DNA of 32,912 nt from Accumulibacter sp. (GTDB taxonomy: Bacteria > Pseudomonadota > Gammaproteobacteria > Burkholderiales > Rhodocyclaceae), in assembly GCF_023806635.1 (NCBI RefSeq), contig NZ_JAMTDQ010000020.1, forward strand, positions 1-32,912, in the 5' to 3' direction. Positions 10,758 to 16,575 of this stretch are shown piece after piece. Position 1 is the stretch's first letter. Every line of letters begins with the position of its first letter. The position numbers were made by a program, and so were the translations under genes. Under the pieces are notes generated by a model. That model was not told the DNA's origin. It did no database searches and saw only the letters and a program-made list of their open reading frames with translations.

Positions 10758-11573
10758 ATGGCAAGGATCGACTCCTCGTTGCCCGACCTGAGTGACCTGG
10801 ACGGTCTCGCCTGCCGCGACTCGCCGATCCATCGCCTGGATCCGCGGATCAAGCTGCTCACCACCCTGCTCTTCATCGTCTGTGTCGTCTCCTTCGACAA
10901 GCATCAGCTTTCGGCACTGCTGCCCTTCGCCGCCTACCCGGTCGTCCTGCTCATCCTGGCCAGGCTGCCGCCAGCGTGGATCCTGCGCAAGCTGCTGCTG
11001 GCGGTGCCGTTCGCCCTGTGCGTCGGCATCTTCAATCCACTCTTCGACCGCACGACGCTGCTGCACATCGGCTCGCTCGAGATCTCCGGCGGCTGGGTTT
11101 CCTTCGCCTCGATCATGCTGCGCTTCGCACTCACCGTCAGTGCCGCCCTGATCCTCGTCGCCAGCACCGGTTTCGATGCGCTCTGCCTGGCGCTCGCGCG
11201 CCTCGGCGTGCCGCGCCCCTTCGTCGTCCAGTTGCTGTTGCTCTACCGTTATCTCTTCGTTCTCGTCGATGAGGCGCTGCGGCTCTCGCGGGCGCGGGCG
11301 CAGCGCTCCTTCGCTGGGCGCGGCATGGAGCTGACGGTCGTCGCCAGCCTGCTGGCACAACTGCTGCTGCGCACGCTCGATCGCGCGCAACGCATCTACC
11401 TGGCGATGCAGTGCCGCGGCTTCGACGGCGAAGTGCGCCTGCTGCGCCGGCTGCGCATCGGCGCGAGCGATGTGCTCTTCCTGACCGGCTGGACGGCGAT
11501 CCTGCTCGCGCTGCGCTTCCTCGCTCCGGCGCCCACCCTCGGCCAAGCCATCGGCCGGCTGTTGCCATCGTGA
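10758..11573 (+). CDS. cbiQ: ECF transporter transmembrane coupling protein CbiQ
   Basis: The T component connects the metal-binding CbiM to the ATPase. The 271 residues carry a conserved N-terminal stretch with SPIHRLDPRIKLL (22-34), hydrophobic segments from about 35 to 135, and the cytoplasmic helices that grip the ATPase. These include SRARAQRSFAGRG (177-189) and the Arg-Gly coupling motif MQCRGFDGEV (217-226). A last membrane helix lies near 245-262. The ATG at 10758 lacks a strong ribosome site. Its stop TGA shares bases with the GTG start of cbiO (GTGA), giving translational coupling and equal supply of the two partners. Confidence 0.92.
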   Translation: MARIDSSLPDLSDLDGLACRDSPIHRLDPRIKLLTTLLFIVCVVSFDKHQLSALLPFAAYPVVLLILARLPPAWILRKLLLAVPFALCVGIFNPLFDRTTLLHIGSLEISGGWVSFASIMLRFALTVSAALILVASTGFDALCLALARLGVPRPFVVQLLLLYRYLFVLVDEALRLSRARAQRSFAGRGMELTVVASLLAQLLLRTLDRAQRIYLAMQCRGFDGEVRLLRRLRIGASDVLFLTGWTAILLALRFLAPAPTLGQAIGRLLPS

Positions 11574-12352
11574 CACGCCCGCTGGTCGTCGTCAGCGATC
11601 TCCGGCATGCCTACGCCGATGGCCAGACGGCGCTGCACGGCGTCTCGTTCCAGGTCGGCAGCGGCGACAGGCTGGCGATCGTCGGCGCCAACGGCGCCGG
11701 CAAATCGACCACCCTGCTGCACCTCGCCGGCTGCCTGCTGCCACAGGCCGGCAGCGTGCGCGTCGCCGATCTCCTCCTGTGCCGCGAAAACCTGTCGCAA
11801 CTGCGGCGCAGCGTCGGCATGCTGTTCCAGAACCCCGACGATCAGCTGTTCATGCCGCGCGTCTTCGACGACGTCGCCTTCGGCCCGGTGAACCTCGGTT
11901 TGCCGGCCGACGACGTACAGCAACGGGTGATGCACGCGCTCGCGGTGGTCGGCGCGACGCATCTGTCGCACCGCCAGCCGCACCGGTTGTCAGGCGGCGA
12001 GAAGCGCGCCGTCGCCATCGCTTCGGTGCTCGCGCTGTCGCCCGCCGTCCTCCTCATGGACGAGCCGACGTCCAGCCTCGACCCCGCTTCGCGGCGGCAA
12101 CTGATCGAGCTTCTGCAGACCTTCGAGCAAACCCTCATCATCGCCACGCACGATCTCGACATGGTCCTCGATCTCTGCCCGCGGACACTGGTGCTCGGCG
12201 AAGGAAGGATCATCGCCGACGGCGCCAGCGCCGTCATCCTGAGCGATGCGGCGCTGCTCGCGGCGGCTCGTCTCGAGCAGCCACTGCGGTTGCAGGCCTG
12301 CCCGGTGTGCAGCGGCGCCGCCCGCCGGCCCTCGCCGCCGCCCGGGCGATGA
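11570..12352 (+). CDS. cbiO: ECF transporter ATP-binding protein CbiO
   Basis: The ABC ATPase drives metal uptake by CbiM-CbiQ. The GTG start at 11570 gives 260 residues and a four-base overlap with cbiQ; longer frames from 11411 run inside cbiQ. Walker A is GANGAGKST (39-47), the Q-loop glutamine Gln87 in FQNPDDQLF, the signature LSGGEKR (140-146), Walker B VLLMDEP (160-166) and the switch histidine His194, so the enzyme looks complete. The FQNPDDQ stretch is typical of ECF ATPases. Only one ATPase is present, consistent with a dedicated group I ECF transporter using a homodimer. A GC-rich hairpin lies just beyond the stop. Confidence 0.95.
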   Translation: MTRPLVVVSDLRHAYADGQTALHGVSFQVGSGDRLAIVGANGAGKSTTLLHLAGCLLPQAGSVRVADLLLCRENLSQLRRSVGMLFQNPDDQLFMPRVFDDVAFGPVNLGLPADDVQQRVMHALAVVGATHLSHRQPHRLSGGEKRAVAIASVLALSPAVLLMDEPTSSLDPASRRQLIELLQTFEQTLIIATHDLDMVLDLCPRTLVLGEGRIIADGASAVILSDAALLAAARLEQPLRLQACPVCSGAARRPSPPPGR

Positions 12353-12364
12353 GCCTCGGGTTGC

Positions 12365-12383
12365 CGCCCGGTCAGCCCGGGCG
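12365..12383. terminator. GC-rich hairpin between convergent cbiO and the 285-residue gene
   Basis: CGCCCGG at 12365-12371 pairs with CCGGGCG at 12377-12383 around a 5-base loop, in the 19-base gap between convergent genes and across the stop of the minus-strand gene. It has no T run, so it is only a candidate bidirectional terminator. Confidence 0.35.
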
Positions 12384-13229
12384 ATCGGCCGGCCGCCCGT
12401 CCCCCGACGGCAGGCAGCTCTCCCAGGGCCGCTCGCAGGGCAGCTCGGCCGCTCGGATGTGCGCGCCGTCAGCGGCGGTATAGGTTGCGGCAAAGGCATC
12501 CGGCGACACCGAACGCACCTCGCGCTCGCCGCTTTCGCGGTGGCCCGAGACCAGCAGGAAGACGCCACCTTCAGCGCCGAGATGCAGGTCACCGACGCGT
12601 GCCGGCCCGGGCACGAAGACGGCGTACACACTCTCGCCGACACGCAGGTGCAGACCGAAGGCACTGATGCCCGTCGCCGTGTCGGCGACCACCGCCAGCG
12701 ATCTCGCGACATAGGCGCGCCGCGAGTCGTAGCGGTCGTCGAGACCGATCCGCTGGGCGTGCTCGAGCACCAACAGCACCCGCTCGACCGAATCGAGCGC
12801 CGCCGGCCCGCCCATACCCAGCACGAAGCCCTGCAGCGCCTGCGCCTGCGCGGCGGTCGGTCGGTCGAAGATGAGGACACCATCGCCCGCACTGCTCACC
12901 CCCTGGAAGATGGCGTCCTCGTAGTTGAAGAAGACGACGCCCCTGGGCACCGATCCGTCCACCGCGAGGATCGGCCGTCCGCGCCAGCCTTCGAGGGGTT
13001 GTCCCGCCTTCGGATGCGGCACTGCCGCCAATGGGTGCGGCGCTCCGTCCCGCCGCCGCATGTCGGGCGGATAGCGCGCGGGGTAGCGCAGCTCCTCGCC
13101 CGGGAACGCTGGGATCGGCAGCACGAAGCGGGAAGCCTCCTGCCGGTCGCGGCGGGGCAGTACAACCGCCGCCGGATCGAAGCGGATGGCGTCGATTGAA
13201 AAACTCGGTACCGCGGTGCCGCTACTCAT
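12372..13229 (-). CDS. Unrecognised protein, 285 residues, downstream partner of the phosphatase-SLOG-NMNAT fusion
   Basis: I do not recognise the family. The ATG at 13229 has a GGGAG ribosome site about 10 bases upstream and lies 34 bases after the stop of the fusion gene, so the two are almost certainly one operon. No signal peptide or membrane helix is visible. The first ~75 residues are Pro/Arg-rich. Residues about 83-215 look like a compact globular domain with beta-strand-like runs such as ILAVDG and GVVFFNYEDAIF. The last ~15 residues are Pro/Gly/Asp-rich and probably disordered. Longer frames upstream run inside the fusion gene. The pairing suggests a role tied to the nucleotide chemistry of that protein, but no catalytic motif can be pointed to. 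Confidence 0.8.
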   Translation of the reverse strand: MSSGTAVPSFSIDAIRFDPAAVVLPRRDRQEASRFVLPIPAFPGEELRYPARYPPDMRRRDGAPHPLAAVPHPKAGQPLEGWRGRPILAVDGSVPRGVVFFNYEDAIFQGVSSAGDGVLIFDRPTAAQAQALQGFVLGMGGPAALDSVERVLLVLEHAQRIGLDDRYDSRRAYVARSLAVVADTATGISAFGLHLRVGESVYAVFVPGPARVGDLHLGAEGGVFLLVSGHRESGEREVRSVSPDAFAATYTAADGAHIRAAELPCERPWESCLPSGDGRPADRPG

Positions 13230-13263
13230 GGCAAGCTGTCTCCCTGTCGGCCCCTGTCGCGTG

Positions 13264-15951
13264 TCACGATGGATCCACCTGCGTACATGTGCCAGCAGGA
13301 TAGAGGCCGTGCATCCGGATGTAGTCCACCAGCCCTGGCGGCAGCCCGACCACTGGTCGATTGGCCTGAAGCGCCTGCCGGATCGCCGTCGACGACAGGC
13401 CGCGGTCGAGGTCGTCAATGGTGTGCACCGGCTGCCCGTCCACGAGAGACGGAAGCGATGCTCCGTCGTGGCGGTCGTTTGCCAGGATCTGGACGCCCGG
13501 CAGCCGCTGCTCCGGCGGCAAGCCGGCATACCAGCGCAAGGCGTCACTGCCCAGCAGGGCAAAGACCTTGGCCCGCGGGTGACGTTGCCGTACTCCCGCC
13601 AGCAGCTCCGACAACTCACCACCGCCGAAGCGGTCGTCAGCGTCCGCCTGCAGCACCTGGACGCACGCTTCACCATCGAACAGCAAGCGCGTCATCGCCA
13701 TGCGGTGCGCGAGCGGCAGCATGCGCTTGTAGCTGGGCACGATGTCGGGCACGACATACACCAGGTCCAGTGCGAACTGCTCCCGCATGCGCCGCACCAG
13801 GTCGCGGTGGCCTGCGTGCGGCGGGTCGAAGGAGCCAGCGAATACCCCGACGCGCTGCGGACCGGCAGCCGGTATCGCCTCGGTCCCGCCGGCCGCAACG
13901 CTCACCGCCGGGTGCCGTCGCGCGGCAGCCAGATCGTGCAGGGTATCGAGAACCCGCCATCGCCGCTCGGCTGCCGGCAGCATGCTCGCGGCGTGCGCCG
14001 AGGCGCCGCCGTCACCGACGGCGTCGGCAGAGCGGCGAACCAGGAAATGCGGCAGGCCGATCTGCGCGGCGTGCGCGATACCCTCGCTGACGATGCTGCC
14101 GCCACCGACGAACACCGCGTAACCGCCGTGTTCCTCGGCGAGGGTCAGCGCCGCCAGCAGGGGCGCCGACCAGTCCTGATGGGCGCCGGCAAACGCCACC
14201 GTGTCGACCAGATCGATCTCGCCGGCGATCGCACCTTGCTGGATGAAGCCGATGATCTCGTAGCCACTGGCACGCGCCAGGCGGTGGACGGCTCGTTCGA
14301 AGCCGAGGTCGGTGCCCCCGGTGATCAGGATGTCTCGCAGCGGCGACGCGAGTTGCGCCACCAGGGCGAGCGCCTCATCCTCGACGCGTCCTTCGGCGAA
14401 GGGCGAATGACCGAACTTCGAGAAGCCGGAAACGACGACCGGCCTGCGATCGCCGATCAGTGCCTCGACGGCACCGAGCGTCAGGACTCGTTTACCCCTG
14501 CGCTGCAACTCGGTGACGAGCAGATCGAAATGGCGCCGCGGATCCTCGAGCTCGGAGCGTGCGACCGCAGCCTCGGGCTGCATGCTGGCGAGCGTGGCAC
14601 GATCGACGAGCTGGTCACGGATGTTGTGGCCATCGAAGTACTTGCTGACGAGGAAGCGCGTACCGCCGTCCACGCGCGTCCTGCCGACGACGGTATAGCG
14701 CTCCACACGCGTCACCATGCCGATCGGCGGCGGGCTGTTCGCCGCGACACGGTAGGCAATCGAGATACCGCGCGAAGTCATCCCCCTCACCCGGATGCCC
14801 CCGCGCACATCGATGCTGATCGTCGACCGGGCGCCGGCTCGTCGATGCGAGGTGTCCGCCATCAGGCGCAGGAAACCATCCGCCTTCAGCGGTCCCGGCA
14901 GGTCACCAAAAGGCGAATGACCGACGATCTCGGTGTCGATGCCGGCGTCACGCAGGTAGGCGATCGCCGCCTCGTCGGGCACGCGGAAGTTGCCGCGCTC
15001 GCGCTGGCGAAACGGGTAGATCAGGCTCACGTCGTTCATGAACAGTGCGCCGGAACCTTCGCGGGCATTCGCATCCCAGATGGCATCGGCATAGCGGATG
15101 AAGGCGTCGGGAAAGCTGCCGTCGCCCCCCGGCGAACGGATGGCCCGTTCGATCAGTCCCATCTGCTCGCGCCCATAGGCGTTCAGCGCCGTGATCCACT
15201 GCCGCGCATGCGCGATCCGGCTGGTGGCGCCCGGAACGAAACCAATGTTCGACTGCGAGACCCCGCCGTGGTCGATGAGGACGTTGCCGTGCAGGATGGC
15301 GACCTGTCCGAGGCGCAGGAACTCGAACATGCTGCCACCCGGTTGCAGCCGCGCGACGTAGTCCTCGGCGGCCTCGCCGCGTGTGACGGGTCGTCCATGA
15401 ATCTCGCCGAGTTCCTGCCAATGGAATTCGAAAGCCCGCGCAGCGCCCTGTCGCGTCAGCCAGTAGTCGATGCGACGGTCGAGGGTGTTGCACCCGCCGC
15501 CGCGAGCAGGACCGCCACTGCCCTCGACCACTGGTACCGCGCCGGCGACGCCGCTGTCGGGCTGGCCGCACAGCCACGCTTCGTAGTCCGGCGTGCCGCG
15601 CTCGAGCAGCGGCAGATCGCGCAGCAATACCAGGTTCTTGAGGTCCAGGTTGCCATGCGCCCAGGCGACGCGGCCGGGATGGCGTCGCCTGAGCGCGAGC
15701 AGCATGTCGACGAGCCGGATCGTGTACGGCCCGCGGTCGGTCACATCGCCAGCGAAGTACAGCCCGTCGTACGGATCGACGAAATCCAGGGCACCATCGA
15801 CGAGGCGCATCCTGCCCGCGTCGACCAGATCATCGATCGCGTCACGCCTGCCCTCGAGGTCGGTGACCACATGGACAGTCCGGCAGCAGGCGGCCGGTCC
15901 CAGCGGGAGCGGATCACTCGGCGCTCCCCCTGGCATGGGCAACGGGTACAT
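13264..15951 (-). CDS. Three-part fusion: PPP-like metallophosphatase, SLOG-like domain, NMN adenylyltransferase (NadD-like)
   Basis: A large protein of 895 residues, taking the ATG at 15951; a GTG at 16065 would add 38 poorly conserved-looking residues. Residues ~25-350 resemble calcineurin-type phosphatases: VTDLEG (29-34), GDVTDRGP (68-75), HGNLD (99-103), HGNVLIDHGG (221-230) and VGHSPFGD (343-350). Two normally conserved histidines are replaced, by Glu33 and Leu102. Residues ~350-500 are unassigned. Residues ~503-645 resemble the SLOG Rossmann-like nucleotide-binding fold, with ITGGTDLGFE (543-552) and FVGGGSIVSEG (614-624). Residues ~700-885 are an adenylyltransferase with GSFDPPHAGH (706-715) and SSTAIR (853-858), intact for making NAD or its acid form from the mononucleotide. 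The combination is unusual; function is inferred as NAD or related nucleotide metabolism or sensing. It diverges from a Nudix gene. Confidence 0.85.
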   Translation of the reverse strand: MYPLPMPGGAPSDPLPLGPAACCRTVHVVTDLEGRRDAIDDLVDAGRMRLVDGALDFVDPYDGLYFAGDVTDRGPYTIRLVDMLLALRRRHPGRVAWAHGNLDLKNLVLLRDLPLLERGTPDYEAWLCGQPDSGVAGAVPVVEGSGGPARGGGCNTLDRRIDYWLTRQGAARAFEFHWQELGEIHGRPVTRGEAAEDYVARLQPGGSMFEFLRLGQVAILHGNVLIDHGGVSQSNIGFVPGATSRIAHARQWITALNAYGREQMGLIERAIRSPGGDGSFPDAFIRYADAIWDANAREGSGALFMNDVSLIYPFRQRERGNFRVPDEAAIAYLRDAGIDTEIVGHSPFGDLPGPLKADGFLRLMADTSHRRAGARSTISIDVRGGIRVRGMTSRGISIAYRVAANSPPPIGMVTRVERYTVVGRTRVDGGTRFLVSKYFDGHNIRDQLVDRATLASMQPEAAVARSELEDPRRHFDLLVTELQRRGKRVLTLGAVEALIGDRRPVVVSGFSKFGHSPFAEGRVEDEALALVAQLASPLRDILITGGTDLGFERAVHRLARASGYEIIGFIQQGAIAGEIDLVDTVAFAGAHQDWSAPLLAALTLAEEHGGYAVFVGGGSIVSEGIAHAAQIGLPHFLVRRSADAVGDGGASAHAASMLPAAERRWRVLDTLHDLAAARRHPAVSVAAGGTEAIPAAGPQRVGVFAGSFDPPHAGHRDLVRRMREQFALDLVYVVPDIVPSYKRMLPLAHRMAMTRLLFDGEACVQVLQADADDRFGGGELSELLAGVRQRHPRAKVFALLGSDALRWYAGLPPEQRLPGVQILANDRHDGASLPSLVDGQPVHTIDDLDRGLSSTAIRQALQANRPVVGLPPGLVDYIRMHGLYPAGTCTQVDPS

Positions 15952-15985
15952 GATTTCGAAAGCCTCGCTGGTTCGGGATCCGCTT

Positions 15986-16007
15986 GCACCCCGATCGGGA
16001 TGGGTGC
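15986..16007. promoter_or_regulatory. Nested dyads in the divergent promoter region (candidate operator)
   Basis: GCACCC (15986-15991) and GGGTGC (16002-16007) flank a perfect 10-base palindrome CCCGATCGGG (15990-15999). They lie in the 192-base region between the divergent fusion and Nudix genes, about 35 bases upstream of the fusion start. A shared regulator site is possible; no strong -35/-10 was found for either gene. Confidence 0.35.
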
Positions 16008-16143
16008 GTGCAGCAAGGATAGCAGGCCGGGGCGAAGCTTGCCCAGGATGGCTGCCGCGCCACACCTGCCGGCGAAAATGCGCTACCGTTCAGCGTTTCC
16101 GCGGCGGACGGGCAGCCGGCCCGCCCGGGCAGACCGACCGGAC

Positions 16144-16575
16144 ATGAAGACAGACATGAAGAGACAGCGCGCCACCATCATCGTCGAGCTTGACGGCGGC
16201 ATCCTGCTGGTCGAGAACCGGGGCGGACTCGTCCTGCTGCCGGGCGGCGGTTTGCACGCGGACGAATCCCGCCTGCAGGCAGCAGCCCGCGAGCTCGCCG
16301 AGGAAACGCGCCTGGTGGCGCAATCGCTGCTCTTCCTCTTCGAGCATGAATCGGCAACCAATCGCCATTCGGTGTTCTGGGCCGCCGCGTCGGGGACCGC
16401 ACTCGCCGGCGACGACGCCACCGCGCTGCACCGCTTCGTCGCCGGCGACACGGCGCTGAACGGGCGCATGTCGTTGGCCAGCCAGCAGATCATCGAGCGT
16501 TTCCTGGAGCTGCCACGCGACGCAAGCGGCGTTCCCGGGTTGCCCGGCAGCGGGCACGGCCCGCTCCAGGCTTGA
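16144..16575 (+). CDS. Nudix hydrolase
   Basis: Nudix enzymes split nucleoside diphosphates linked to another moiety, for example ADP-ribose, NADH or dNTPs. The 143-residue protein has a beta-strand start followed by the Nudix box at 35-57: Gly35, Glu41, then REL at 49-51 and the metal-binding Glu53-Glu54. The usual Gly after these glutamates is Thr55. The length is close to a minimal Nudix fold, so there is no extra specificity domain. I take the ATG at 16144; an ATG at 16156 is equally placed, and neither has a strong ribosome site. It diverges from the phosphatase-SLOG-NMNAT gene and may share its control region. Substrate unknown; an NAD- or ADP-ribose-related one would fit the neighbours, by inference only. 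Confidence 0.87.
   Translation: MKTDMKRQRATIIVELDGGILLVENRGGLVLLPGGGLHADESRLQAAARELAEETRLVAQSLLFLFEHESATNRHSVFWAAASGTALAGDDATALHRFVAGDTALNGRMSLASQQIIERFLELPRDASGVPGLPGSGHGPLQA

What the first reader, a model, noticed from the sequence alone, without database searches (positions are those of the whole stretch)
13264..15951. Metallophosphatase-SLOG-NMN adenylyltransferase fusion
One 895-residue protein joins a PPP-like phosphatase (GDVTDRGP, VGHSPFGD), a SLOG-like nucleotide fold (ITGGTDLGFE, FVGGGSIVSEG) and an intact adenylyltransferase (GSFDPPHAGH, SSTAIR). SLOG folds elsewhere generate or sense NAD-derived nucleotides, including in anti-phage and stress systems. An enzyme that makes NAD attached to such a domain suggests NAD repair, nucleotide-signal turnover or regulated salvage. 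I know of no described protein with this arrangement.
Basis: partly seen in the sequence, partly recalled or inferred. Interest (0 to 1): 0.82.

Follow-up and report, generated by a model that had tools for sequence, protein, structure and literature searches.

The report
Phosphatase–nucleotide-fold–adenylyltransferase fusion with unknown partner
A rare accessory gene pair in a few related bacteria encodes one long protein joining a phosphatase-like, a nucleotide-binding-like and an NAD-enzyme-like domain, plus a partner protein that matched no known family; it may make, break or sense a dinucleotide, and is probably not an ordinary NAD-making enzyme.

Summary
In detail: 13264-15951(-) is one 895-residue ORF with a PPP-type metallophosphatase domain (~25-395), an unassigned linker, a SLOG-like Rossmannoid domain (~501-660) and a NadD-like adenylyltransferase domain (~698-885). 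Full-length homologues occur in Candidatus Accumulibacter iunctus (77% identity) and a Propionivibrio MAG (59%), so it is no chimera; a further Accumulibacter copy is decayed. It is rare: 4 of 395 family genomes. The pair fills a slot between cbiO and a Nudix gene that is empty in two relatives and holds a toxin-antitoxin pair in a third. The genome has another NadD-like gene. The fusion's adenylyltransferase keeps the ATP motifs (3 of 3) but lacks two motifs common in NadDs (0 of 3), so NAD synthesis is not established. The phosphatase carries DxE and GNLD instead of DxH and GNHE. The SLOG call is probable but below cut-offs; structure could not be tested. Best reading: a dinucleotide make-and-break module. 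Function unproven.

The parts
13264..15951 (-). Fusion gene, 895 codons plus stop (ATG at 15951; upstream GTG at 16065 also in frame)
   Evidence: homologues
14767..15879 (-). PPP-type metallophosphoesterase domain, residues 25-395: D31-L-E33-G, G68-D-V-T-D-R-G-P75, G100-N-L-D103, H228-G-G, G344-H345-x-P-x-G-D-x-P
   Evidence: (Metallophos E 1e-5 on residues 1-450)
14452..14766 (-). Conserved linker, residues 396-500, no assigned family (window copy: Glyoxalase_6 E 0.05, below cut-off; Propionivibrio copy: no match; A. iunctus copy not scanned)
13972..14451 (-). SLOG-like Rossmannoid domain, residues 501-660: ITGGTDxGFE and FVGGG..V.EG
   Evidence: for; weak or contrary: (NYN)
13297..13860 (-). 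NadD-like adenylyltransferase domain, residues 698-885: GSFDPPHxGH, S[SA]TxIR; lacks YTxxT and W[HQ]xW
12372..13229 (-). Gene B, 285 residues, no significant family match; its ATG lies 34 bases after the fusion's stop codon; in one frame with the fusion in Propionivibrio
12347..16053 (.). Accessory block: homology to two relatives with an empty slot (G027, G003) stops at 12313-12346 and resumes at 16053-16054
16144..16575 (+). Divergent Nudix gene; a match in 26 of 28 genus genomes (25 strong), so a neighbour, not a member of the pair
11504..12352 (+). cbiO-like gene (name by recall), left neighbour of the block, also beside the Nudix gene in three relatives without the pair

Best explanation
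An accessory two-gene nucleotide-processing module. Shown by sequence: one chain carries a PPP-type phosphoesterase, a probable SLOG nucleotide-binding domain and an adenylyltransferase of the NadD group; a partner, B, is next to it in each of the four genomes where either was found and is in one frame with it in Propionivibrio. Inferred: the C-terminal domain transfers AMP from ATP to a sugar-phosphate acceptor, making a dinucleotide (NAD-like, but the acceptor need not be nicotinate mononucleotide because the usual motifs are absent). The N-terminal domain, whose nearest named relatives beside Ser/Thr phosphatases are ApaH and PrpE, cleaves the same or a related dinucleotide or removes a phosphate. 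The SLOG-like domain between them binds (or deglycosylates) the nucleotide and so sets the balance. B modifies or uses the product. Synthesis and breakdown in one chain recalls NadM-Nudix and NadD-YqeK. The rarity, decay in one species and placement in a variable slot suggest a conditionally useful (stress or conflict) role, not core metabolism.
For: Domain calls: 5, 20, 23, 70, 82, 85, 86. Same order in three separate assemblies: 12, 47, 53. B in the same 3 of 61 genomes and next to the fusion: 12, 34, 39. Fusion and B in one 1212-residue ORF: 51. Purifying selection in the four regions and in B: 87. Another NadD-like gene in the genome: 3, 9. ATP motifs kept, two NadD motifs lost: 89, 102. 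Motif variant DxE plus GN[LR][DE] shared with a distant standalone homologue, which suggests inheritance and not random decay: 61, 72, 97. Slot empty or filled by a toxin-antitoxin pair in relatives: 88, 105. Weak PrpE and ApaH matches: 20 (E 0.011, 0.24), 70 (E 0.048, 0.0057). NadD and YqeK annotated under one match on a Bacillus plasmid: 13.
Against: No activity is shown for any domain. The phosphatase lacks the His of motif I and of motif III, so it may be altered or inactive. Its best solved relatives are protein phosphatases, so its substrate could be a protein. The SLOG call is sub-threshold, NYN scored about as well on a longer fragment, the LSDAT_prok model did not ring in the own genome at E 0.001, and in a profile-to-sequence test a dihydrolipoamide dehydrogenase-like (probability 68) and an FdhD-like protein (13) scored above a LOG-like protein (9). 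The in-frame join in Propionivibrio keeps an ATG behind a Shine-Dalgarno-like AGGAG at the start of B, so B may also be made separately there. B could not be assigned any function.
Confidence: 0.38

Rival explanations
1. NAD salvage or repair enzyme: the phosphatase and SLOG-like domain convert a damaged or degraded NAD product (such as phosphorylated or cyclic ADP-ribose) into a mononucleotide that the adenylyltransferase turns back into NAD.
For: Best family of the C-terminal domain is TIGR00482 nicotinate(nicotinamide) nucleotide adenylyltransferase over its full length and its best solved relative is B. subtilis NadD, 1kam, E 1.7e-14. Phages rebuild NAD from ADP-ribose products (abstracts of PMC13232231 and PMC12774641).
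Against: Curated NadD cut-off not met; two NadD motifs missing in 3 of 3; the Pfam and NCBIfam scans of the pair showed no nicotinamide phosphoribosyltransferase, kinase or NADase; the rest of the genome was not searched for these.
Confidence: 0.25
2. Anti-phage or other conflict system: the pair makes or destroys a nucleotide signal, with B as effector or signal-modifying enzyme.
For: Patchy distribution (4 of 395), insertion in a slot that elsewhere holds a PIN/Phd-YefM toxin-antitoxin pair, lower GC3 than three neighbours (0.81-0.83 against 0.90-0.93), decay in G015. In Propionivibrio it follows a patatin-like gene and a TPR-S gene, both with PADLOC effector matches. SLOG domains sense or may process ADP-ribose signals in conflict systems (PMC9503650, passages).
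Against: No PADLOC match for the window fusion or B and only E 0.024 for the Propionivibrio protein. The defence-like neighbours occur in one genome only; in the three Accumulibacter loci the neighbours are cbiO and Nudix genes.
Confidence: 0.2
3. A regulator whose phosphatase acts on a protein; the nucleotide domains only sense metabolic state.
For: Best sequence matches of the phosphatase among solved structures are eukaryotic Ser/Thr phosphatases (BSU1 E 1.7e-7, PP2A 7e-7 to 8e-7).
Against: These matches cover mainly the GDxxDRG to GNxx stretch; the Ser/Thr-phosphatase His of GNHE is absent in the fusions. I saw no kinase gene among the immediate neighbours, but did not search the whole window for one.
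Confidence: 0.1

Closest known systems
NadD, bacterial NaMN adenylyltransferase (TIGR00482; B. subtilis 1kam)
   Same: C-terminal domain aligns end to end; GSFDPPHxGH and SxTxIR present
   Different: Fused to two other domains; below curated cut-off; YTxxT and W[HQ]xW absent in 3 of 3; another NadD-like gene is in the genome
NadM-Nudix and NadD-YqeK type proteins (adenylyltransferase coupled to a hydrolase; NadM-Nudix from PMC9503650 passages, NadD beside YqeK, NadD-HD fusion recalled)
   Same: Adenylyltransferase physically coupled to a hydrolase
   Different: Hydrolase is PPP-type, not Nudix or HD; extra SLOG-like domain and partner B
ApaH, PrpE and PPP phosphatases (PF00149)
   Same: GDxxDRGP, GN-x-[DE], HGG and GH motifs; Pfam cut-off met
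   Different: DxE in motif I instead of DxH or DxQ, GN[LR][DE] instead of GNH[DE]; shared with a distant standalone homologue (L049)
ThsA of Thoeris (SIR2-SLOG)
   Same: A SLOG-like domain in a multidomain protein
   Different: No SIR2 or TIR match; adenylyltransferase and phosphatase instead
ADP-ribosylglycohydrolase-centred systems with coupled phosphatases (PMC9503650, section 31)
   Same: Phosphatase coupled to domains that handle ADP-ribose-type nucleotides
   Different: No ARG, Macro or NADAR match in the pair; adenylyltransferase present

Membership tests
NadD (TIGR00482) | Score above the curated cut-off (112.45 bits) | tested here: not met
   63.3 bits; Propionivibrio 65.2 bits; A. 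iunctus copy not scanned
NadD (TIGR00482) | ATP-binding GxFDPxHxGH and SxTxxR motifs (role recalled) | tested here: met
   3 of 3 fusions for both
NadD (TIGR00482) | Y[TM]xxT and GxDxF..W[HQ]xW motifs (role in the nicotinate pocket recalled) | tested here: not met
   0 of 3 fusions; 16 of 18 and 18 of 18 NadD-like proteins of the genome and its relatives
NadD (TIGR00482) | Makes NaAD or NAD | not testable with these tools
   needs enzyme assay
SLOG superfamily | Pfam SLOG-family match above cut-off | tested here: not met
   LSDAT_prok 18.3 bits against 25.4; a LOG-like protein of a relative scored 20.4, also below
SLOG superfamily | SLOG families are the best matches in an all-family search | tested here: met
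   Isolated domain: only LSDAT_prok (3 of 3 copies), YAcAr (2) and LDcluster4 (1). On longer stretches NYN also appears just behind LSDAT_prok
SLOG superfamily | Closer to a SLOG protein than to other Rossmann folds in profile comparison | tested here: inconclusive
   Probabilities: dihydrolipoamide dehydrogenase-like 68, FdhD-like 13, LOG-like 9, five others 0-5; the first two had been picked as weak matches to the same region
SLOG superfamily | SLOG fold | not testable with these tools
   structure prediction switched off
PPP metallophosphatase (PF00149) | Pfam score above cut-off | tested here: met
   24.2 bits against 21.5; Propionivibrio 26.4; distant homologue 41.3
PPP metallophosphatase (PF00149) | DxH motif I and GNH[ED] motif III | tested here: not met
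   DLEG and GNLD in 3 of 3; DSEG and GNRE in L049
NadM-Nudix or NadD-YqeK fusion | Adenylyltransferase with Nudix or HD hydrolase in one chain | tested here: not met
   No Nudix or HD match in the chain
Thoeris | SIR2-SLOG effector plus TIR protein | tested here: not met
   No SIR2 match in the fusion at E up to 1; no TIR match in B
NARP1 NAD reconstitution | Adps plus Nampt-like Namat | tested here: not met
   No Nampt-like match in the fusion or B; genome not searched for it

The most novel reading that the evidence does not exclude
The fusion both builds and destroys a new, non-NAD adenylylated dinucleotide signal: a diverged NadD-type domain adenylylates an unusual sugar phosphate, a DxE-type PPP domain cleaves the product, the SLOG-like domain reads it, and B, a protein family for which no relative was found outside these loci, is the effector or second modifying enzyme. 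It would be a self-contained nucleotide-signalling cassette carried as an accessory island.
Probability: 0.18. Interest if true: 0.85.

Novelty: new variant of a known kind. Interest (0 to 1): 0.52.

Why it matters
Fusions of adenylyltransferases with hydrolases mark places where cells make and break nucleotides in a controlled way. This one adds a probable nucleotide-sensing fold, a phosphatase with a rewritten metal motif and a partner family that matched nothing known, all under purifying selection. The changed motifs give a concrete, cheap question: what does this NadD-like enzyme adenylylate? A non-NAD answer would reveal a new dinucleotide; an NAD answer would reveal a regulated second NAD enzyme.

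Tried and rejected
Housekeeping NadD: rejected, since another NadD-like gene exists and the fusion is in few genomes. Assembly chimera: rejected. Nudix neighbour as third member of the module: rejected, since it has a match in 26 of 28 genus genomes while the pair is in 3 of 28. Weak hits read and discarded as other proteins (identified by eye from the ORF): L032 (dihydrolipoamide dehydrogenase-like) and L035 (FdhD-like), L058 (LeuC-like), the G028 hit (Tex-like). Not read: seven of the nine weak hits, nine of the 17 weak places, the G244 hit. Seven of the 17 weak places had their phosphatase motifs checked. Mobile or viral copies: no relative of residues 1-690, of B or of the distant phosphatase in plasmids, of B in phages, or of these parts in the pattern-based scans of viral contigs (the distant phosphatase was not scanned there); the full protein met only stretches of residues 690-889 in 6 plasmid and 6 phage records. 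Function of B from Pfam, NCBIfam, PADLOC, PHROGs and PDB sequences: nothing significant. Direct or inverted repeats at the block's borders: none beyond chance. First genome-contig scan with the single sequence found nothing; the alignment-based second one found two loci.

Weaknesses of my own computations: my Nudix query was translated one base out of frame, so its Nudix rows are not used; the cbiO, cbiQ, prfB and fusion rows and the independent nucleotide comparison are. In one search my ORF rule clipped the N-terminus of three NadD-like proteins (L011, L013, L015), hence 15 of 18 for the first motif; these 18 were picked by similarity to the own NadD-like ORF, which is one of them, and one (L015) has YM in place of YT. 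The SLOG profile test rests on three sequences. The genome search scored only a capped number of first-look candidates per genome (2, 6, 12), so distant relatives may be missed. Gene B was looked for in fewer genomes (61 and 190) than the fusion.

Full report
WHAT IS THERE. The window is a whole contig of a genome (G000:C20) placed in the same genus as Candidatus Accumulibacter iunctus: handle G023, listed as same genus, has a contig of the same length (24063), with the same hit, as the named record DDUX01000141.1. On the minus strand, 13264-15951 encodes 895 residues without a stop. Pfam gives CTP_transf_like at 703-859 (E 1.9e-11) and Metallophos at 26-113 (E 5.4e-5), both above cut-off, and, below cut-off, LSDAT_prok, a SLOG family, at 523-632 (E 0.056) and NYN at 541-575 (E 0.076). 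On a fragment of 273 residues LSDAT_prok rises to E 0.003 and NYN to 0.0048; on the isolated domain LSDAT_prok is at 0.0014 and NYN is absent.

REAL AND CONSERVED AS A UNIT. Of 61 genomes (own, 27 of the genus, 9 of the family, 24 of the order), 48 match the protein. Only the own genome, G023 and G015 match the phosphatase part; in the other 45 the listed matches start at residue 647 or later and include part of the adenylyltransferase domain, except in G028, whose one match (578-662) is to a Tex-like protein. G023 is intact at 77% identity. G015 has fragments only, one with a stop: no match was found to residues 30-107 (with the first three phosphatase motifs), to about 391-559 (linker and front of the SLOG-like domain) or to about 664-741 (with GSFDPPH). 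The second genome-contig scan added a Propionivibrio MAG at 59% over residues 24-884. With a three-row profile, 4 of 395 family genomes have it: own, G023, the decayed G015 and G1088, whose contig length and ORF length equal those of the Propionivibrio locus. 398 phylum genomes searched with residues 1-690 of the single sequence, 399 order genomes with a two-row profile of residues 400-690 and 312 class genomes with the three-row profile gave no other full-length member. dN/dS between the window and A. iunctus copies is 0.19 (phosphatase), 0.28 (linker), 0.17 (SLOG-like) and 0.37 (adenylyltransferase); against Propionivibrio 0.12-0.24, with near-saturated silent sites; the short stretch 661-697 gave 0.20, saturated and 0.46 in the three comparisons.

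GENE B. Directly downstream, same strand, 12372-13229 encodes 285 residues; its ATG lies 34 bases after the fusion's stop. It has no Pfam match up to E 10, none in NCBIfam or PADLOC up to E 1, nothing in PHROGs better than E 0.36 and nothing in PDB sequences better than E 0.08. It occurs in the same 3 of 61 genomes, next to the fusion in each; of 190 phylum genomes only the own one has it, apart from one unread 43-residue hit at E 0.005. In Propionivibrio the two are one open reading frame of 1212 codons; the join keeps an ATG behind an AGGAG, so B may also be started separately. B is under purifying selection (0.14-0.27 in five of six pairs, saturated in the sixth) and is still open in G015, where the fusion is decayed.

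NEIGHBOURHOOD. The order Nudix, fusion, B, cbiO, cbiM is kept in the three Accumulibacter loci (gene names by recall apart from the Nudix Pfam match). prfB follows the Nudix gene in the window and G015; the G023 contig ends before it; cbiQ is mostly missing in G015. The Nudix gene has a match in 26 of 28 genus genomes, 25 of them strong, so it is a neighbour. Of the 25 loci with strong matches, which reach at most 1500 bases to either side, three hold the fusion and three show cbiO next to the Nudix gene without the pair: in G027 and G003 about 130-220 bases separate the two homologous stretches, in G025 about 900, holding a PIN and a Phd/YefM gene. In the other 19 the neighbours were not identified. 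Homology to the window breaks at 12313-12346 and resumes at 16053-16058. The slot is therefore variable, as for accessory genes. GC3 of the pair is 0.81-0.83 against 0.90-0.93 for three neighbours. In Propionivibrio the fused gene follows a patatin gene and a TPR-S gene, both with PADLOC effector matches; this context is seen once only.

PHOSPHATASE DOMAIN. Conserved in the three fusions: D31-L-E-G, GDxTDRGP, GNLD, HGG, GHSPFGD. A standalone 500-residue homologue in another family of the class (L049; E 2.3e-21, 28% identity) has DSEG, GDLTDRGP, GNRE, HGG, GHQPCGD, so the DxE variant is probably ancestral to both. Eight other phosphatase-type hits have DxH or DxQ and GNH[DE]. L049 is convergent with a NudC-like (NADH pyrophosphatase-type) gene, seen once. 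The solved relatives by sequence are Ser/Thr phosphatases and Rhizobiales-like phosphatase 2; PrpE and ApaH models match weakly.

SLOG-LIKE DOMAIN. On the isolated domain the only Pfam families met by any of the three copies are SLOG families, and a LOG-like protein of a relative scores about as low with the same model (20.4 against 18.3 bits). Against this: none passes its cut-off; NYN scores almost as well on a longer fragment; the LSDAT_prok search over 150 order genomes did not ring for the own genome at E 0.001; the PDB profile search gave no SLOG structure by title; and in a profile-to-sequence test of eight proteins a dihydrolipoamide dehydrogenase-like (68) and an FdhD-like (13) protein scored above the LOG-like one (9). 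I put SLOG at about 0.75 and Rossmannoid at about 0.9; these are judgements.

ADENYLYLTRANSFERASE DOMAIN. It aligns over its length with B. subtilis NadD and best with TIGR00482, but at 63.3 bits against a cut-off of 112.45. The ATP motifs are kept in 3 of 3 fusions; Y[TM]xxT is in 0 of 3 fusions and 16 of 18 NadD-like proteins, and GxDxF..W[HQ]xW in 0 of 3 and 18 of 18. The genome's own NadD-like protein also lacks the first motif but keeps the Trp motif. That these motifs line the nicotinate pocket is recalled, not taken from a call. The genome's other three nucleotidyltransferase matches, CoaD-, NadD- and HldE-like by eye, are separate genes.

HOW IT MIGHT WORK. A chain that can join AMP to something and also carries a phosphoesterase, with a nucleotide-binding fold between them, most resembles make-and-break enzymes. 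NadM-Nudix couples an adenylyltransferase to a hydrolase (PMC9503650, passages), and NadD and YqeK are annotated under one match on a Bacillus plasmid. The literature treats SLOG domains as sensors of, or predicted glycosidases for, ADP-ribose-type nucleotides (PMC9503650, passages), and phosphatases are coupled to predicted ADP-ribose-processing systems (same paper, section 31). Rebuilding NAD from such products is known in phages (abstracts and outlines only). The lost NadD motifs make me prefer an unusual acceptor over plain NAD synthesis. No step of this is shown experimentally.

VERDICT. It is a new combination of known domains with one unassigned partner family: interesting, narrow in distribution and directly testable.

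Noticed in passing
L044:2995-5522: In the Propionivibrio MAG a patatin-like phospholipase gene and a TPR-S (Tetratricopeptide Repeats-Sensor) gene, both with PADLOC effector matches, lie just upstream of the fused gene on the same strand.
   Followed up: partly
L064:607-1256: In G025 the slot that holds the fusion and B elsewhere carries a PIN-domain gene and a Phd/YefM antitoxin gene, so the cbiO-Nudix gap looks like a small insertion hot spot.
   Followed up: partly
L059:2694-5044: A distant standalone homologue of the phosphatase domain, with the same DxE motif, is convergent with a NudC-like (NADH pyrophosphatase-type) Nudix gene.
   Followed up: partly
L041:3194-5782: In the single-contig genome G015 the fusion gene has lost internal stretches in all three domains while gene B next to it stays open, so B may outlive the fusion or be decaying later.
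   Followed up: partly
L002:1273-2025: The genome's own NadD-like protein lacks the Tyr of the YTxxT motif (PSRTV), unlike 16 of the 18 NadD-like proteins compared.
   Followed up: no
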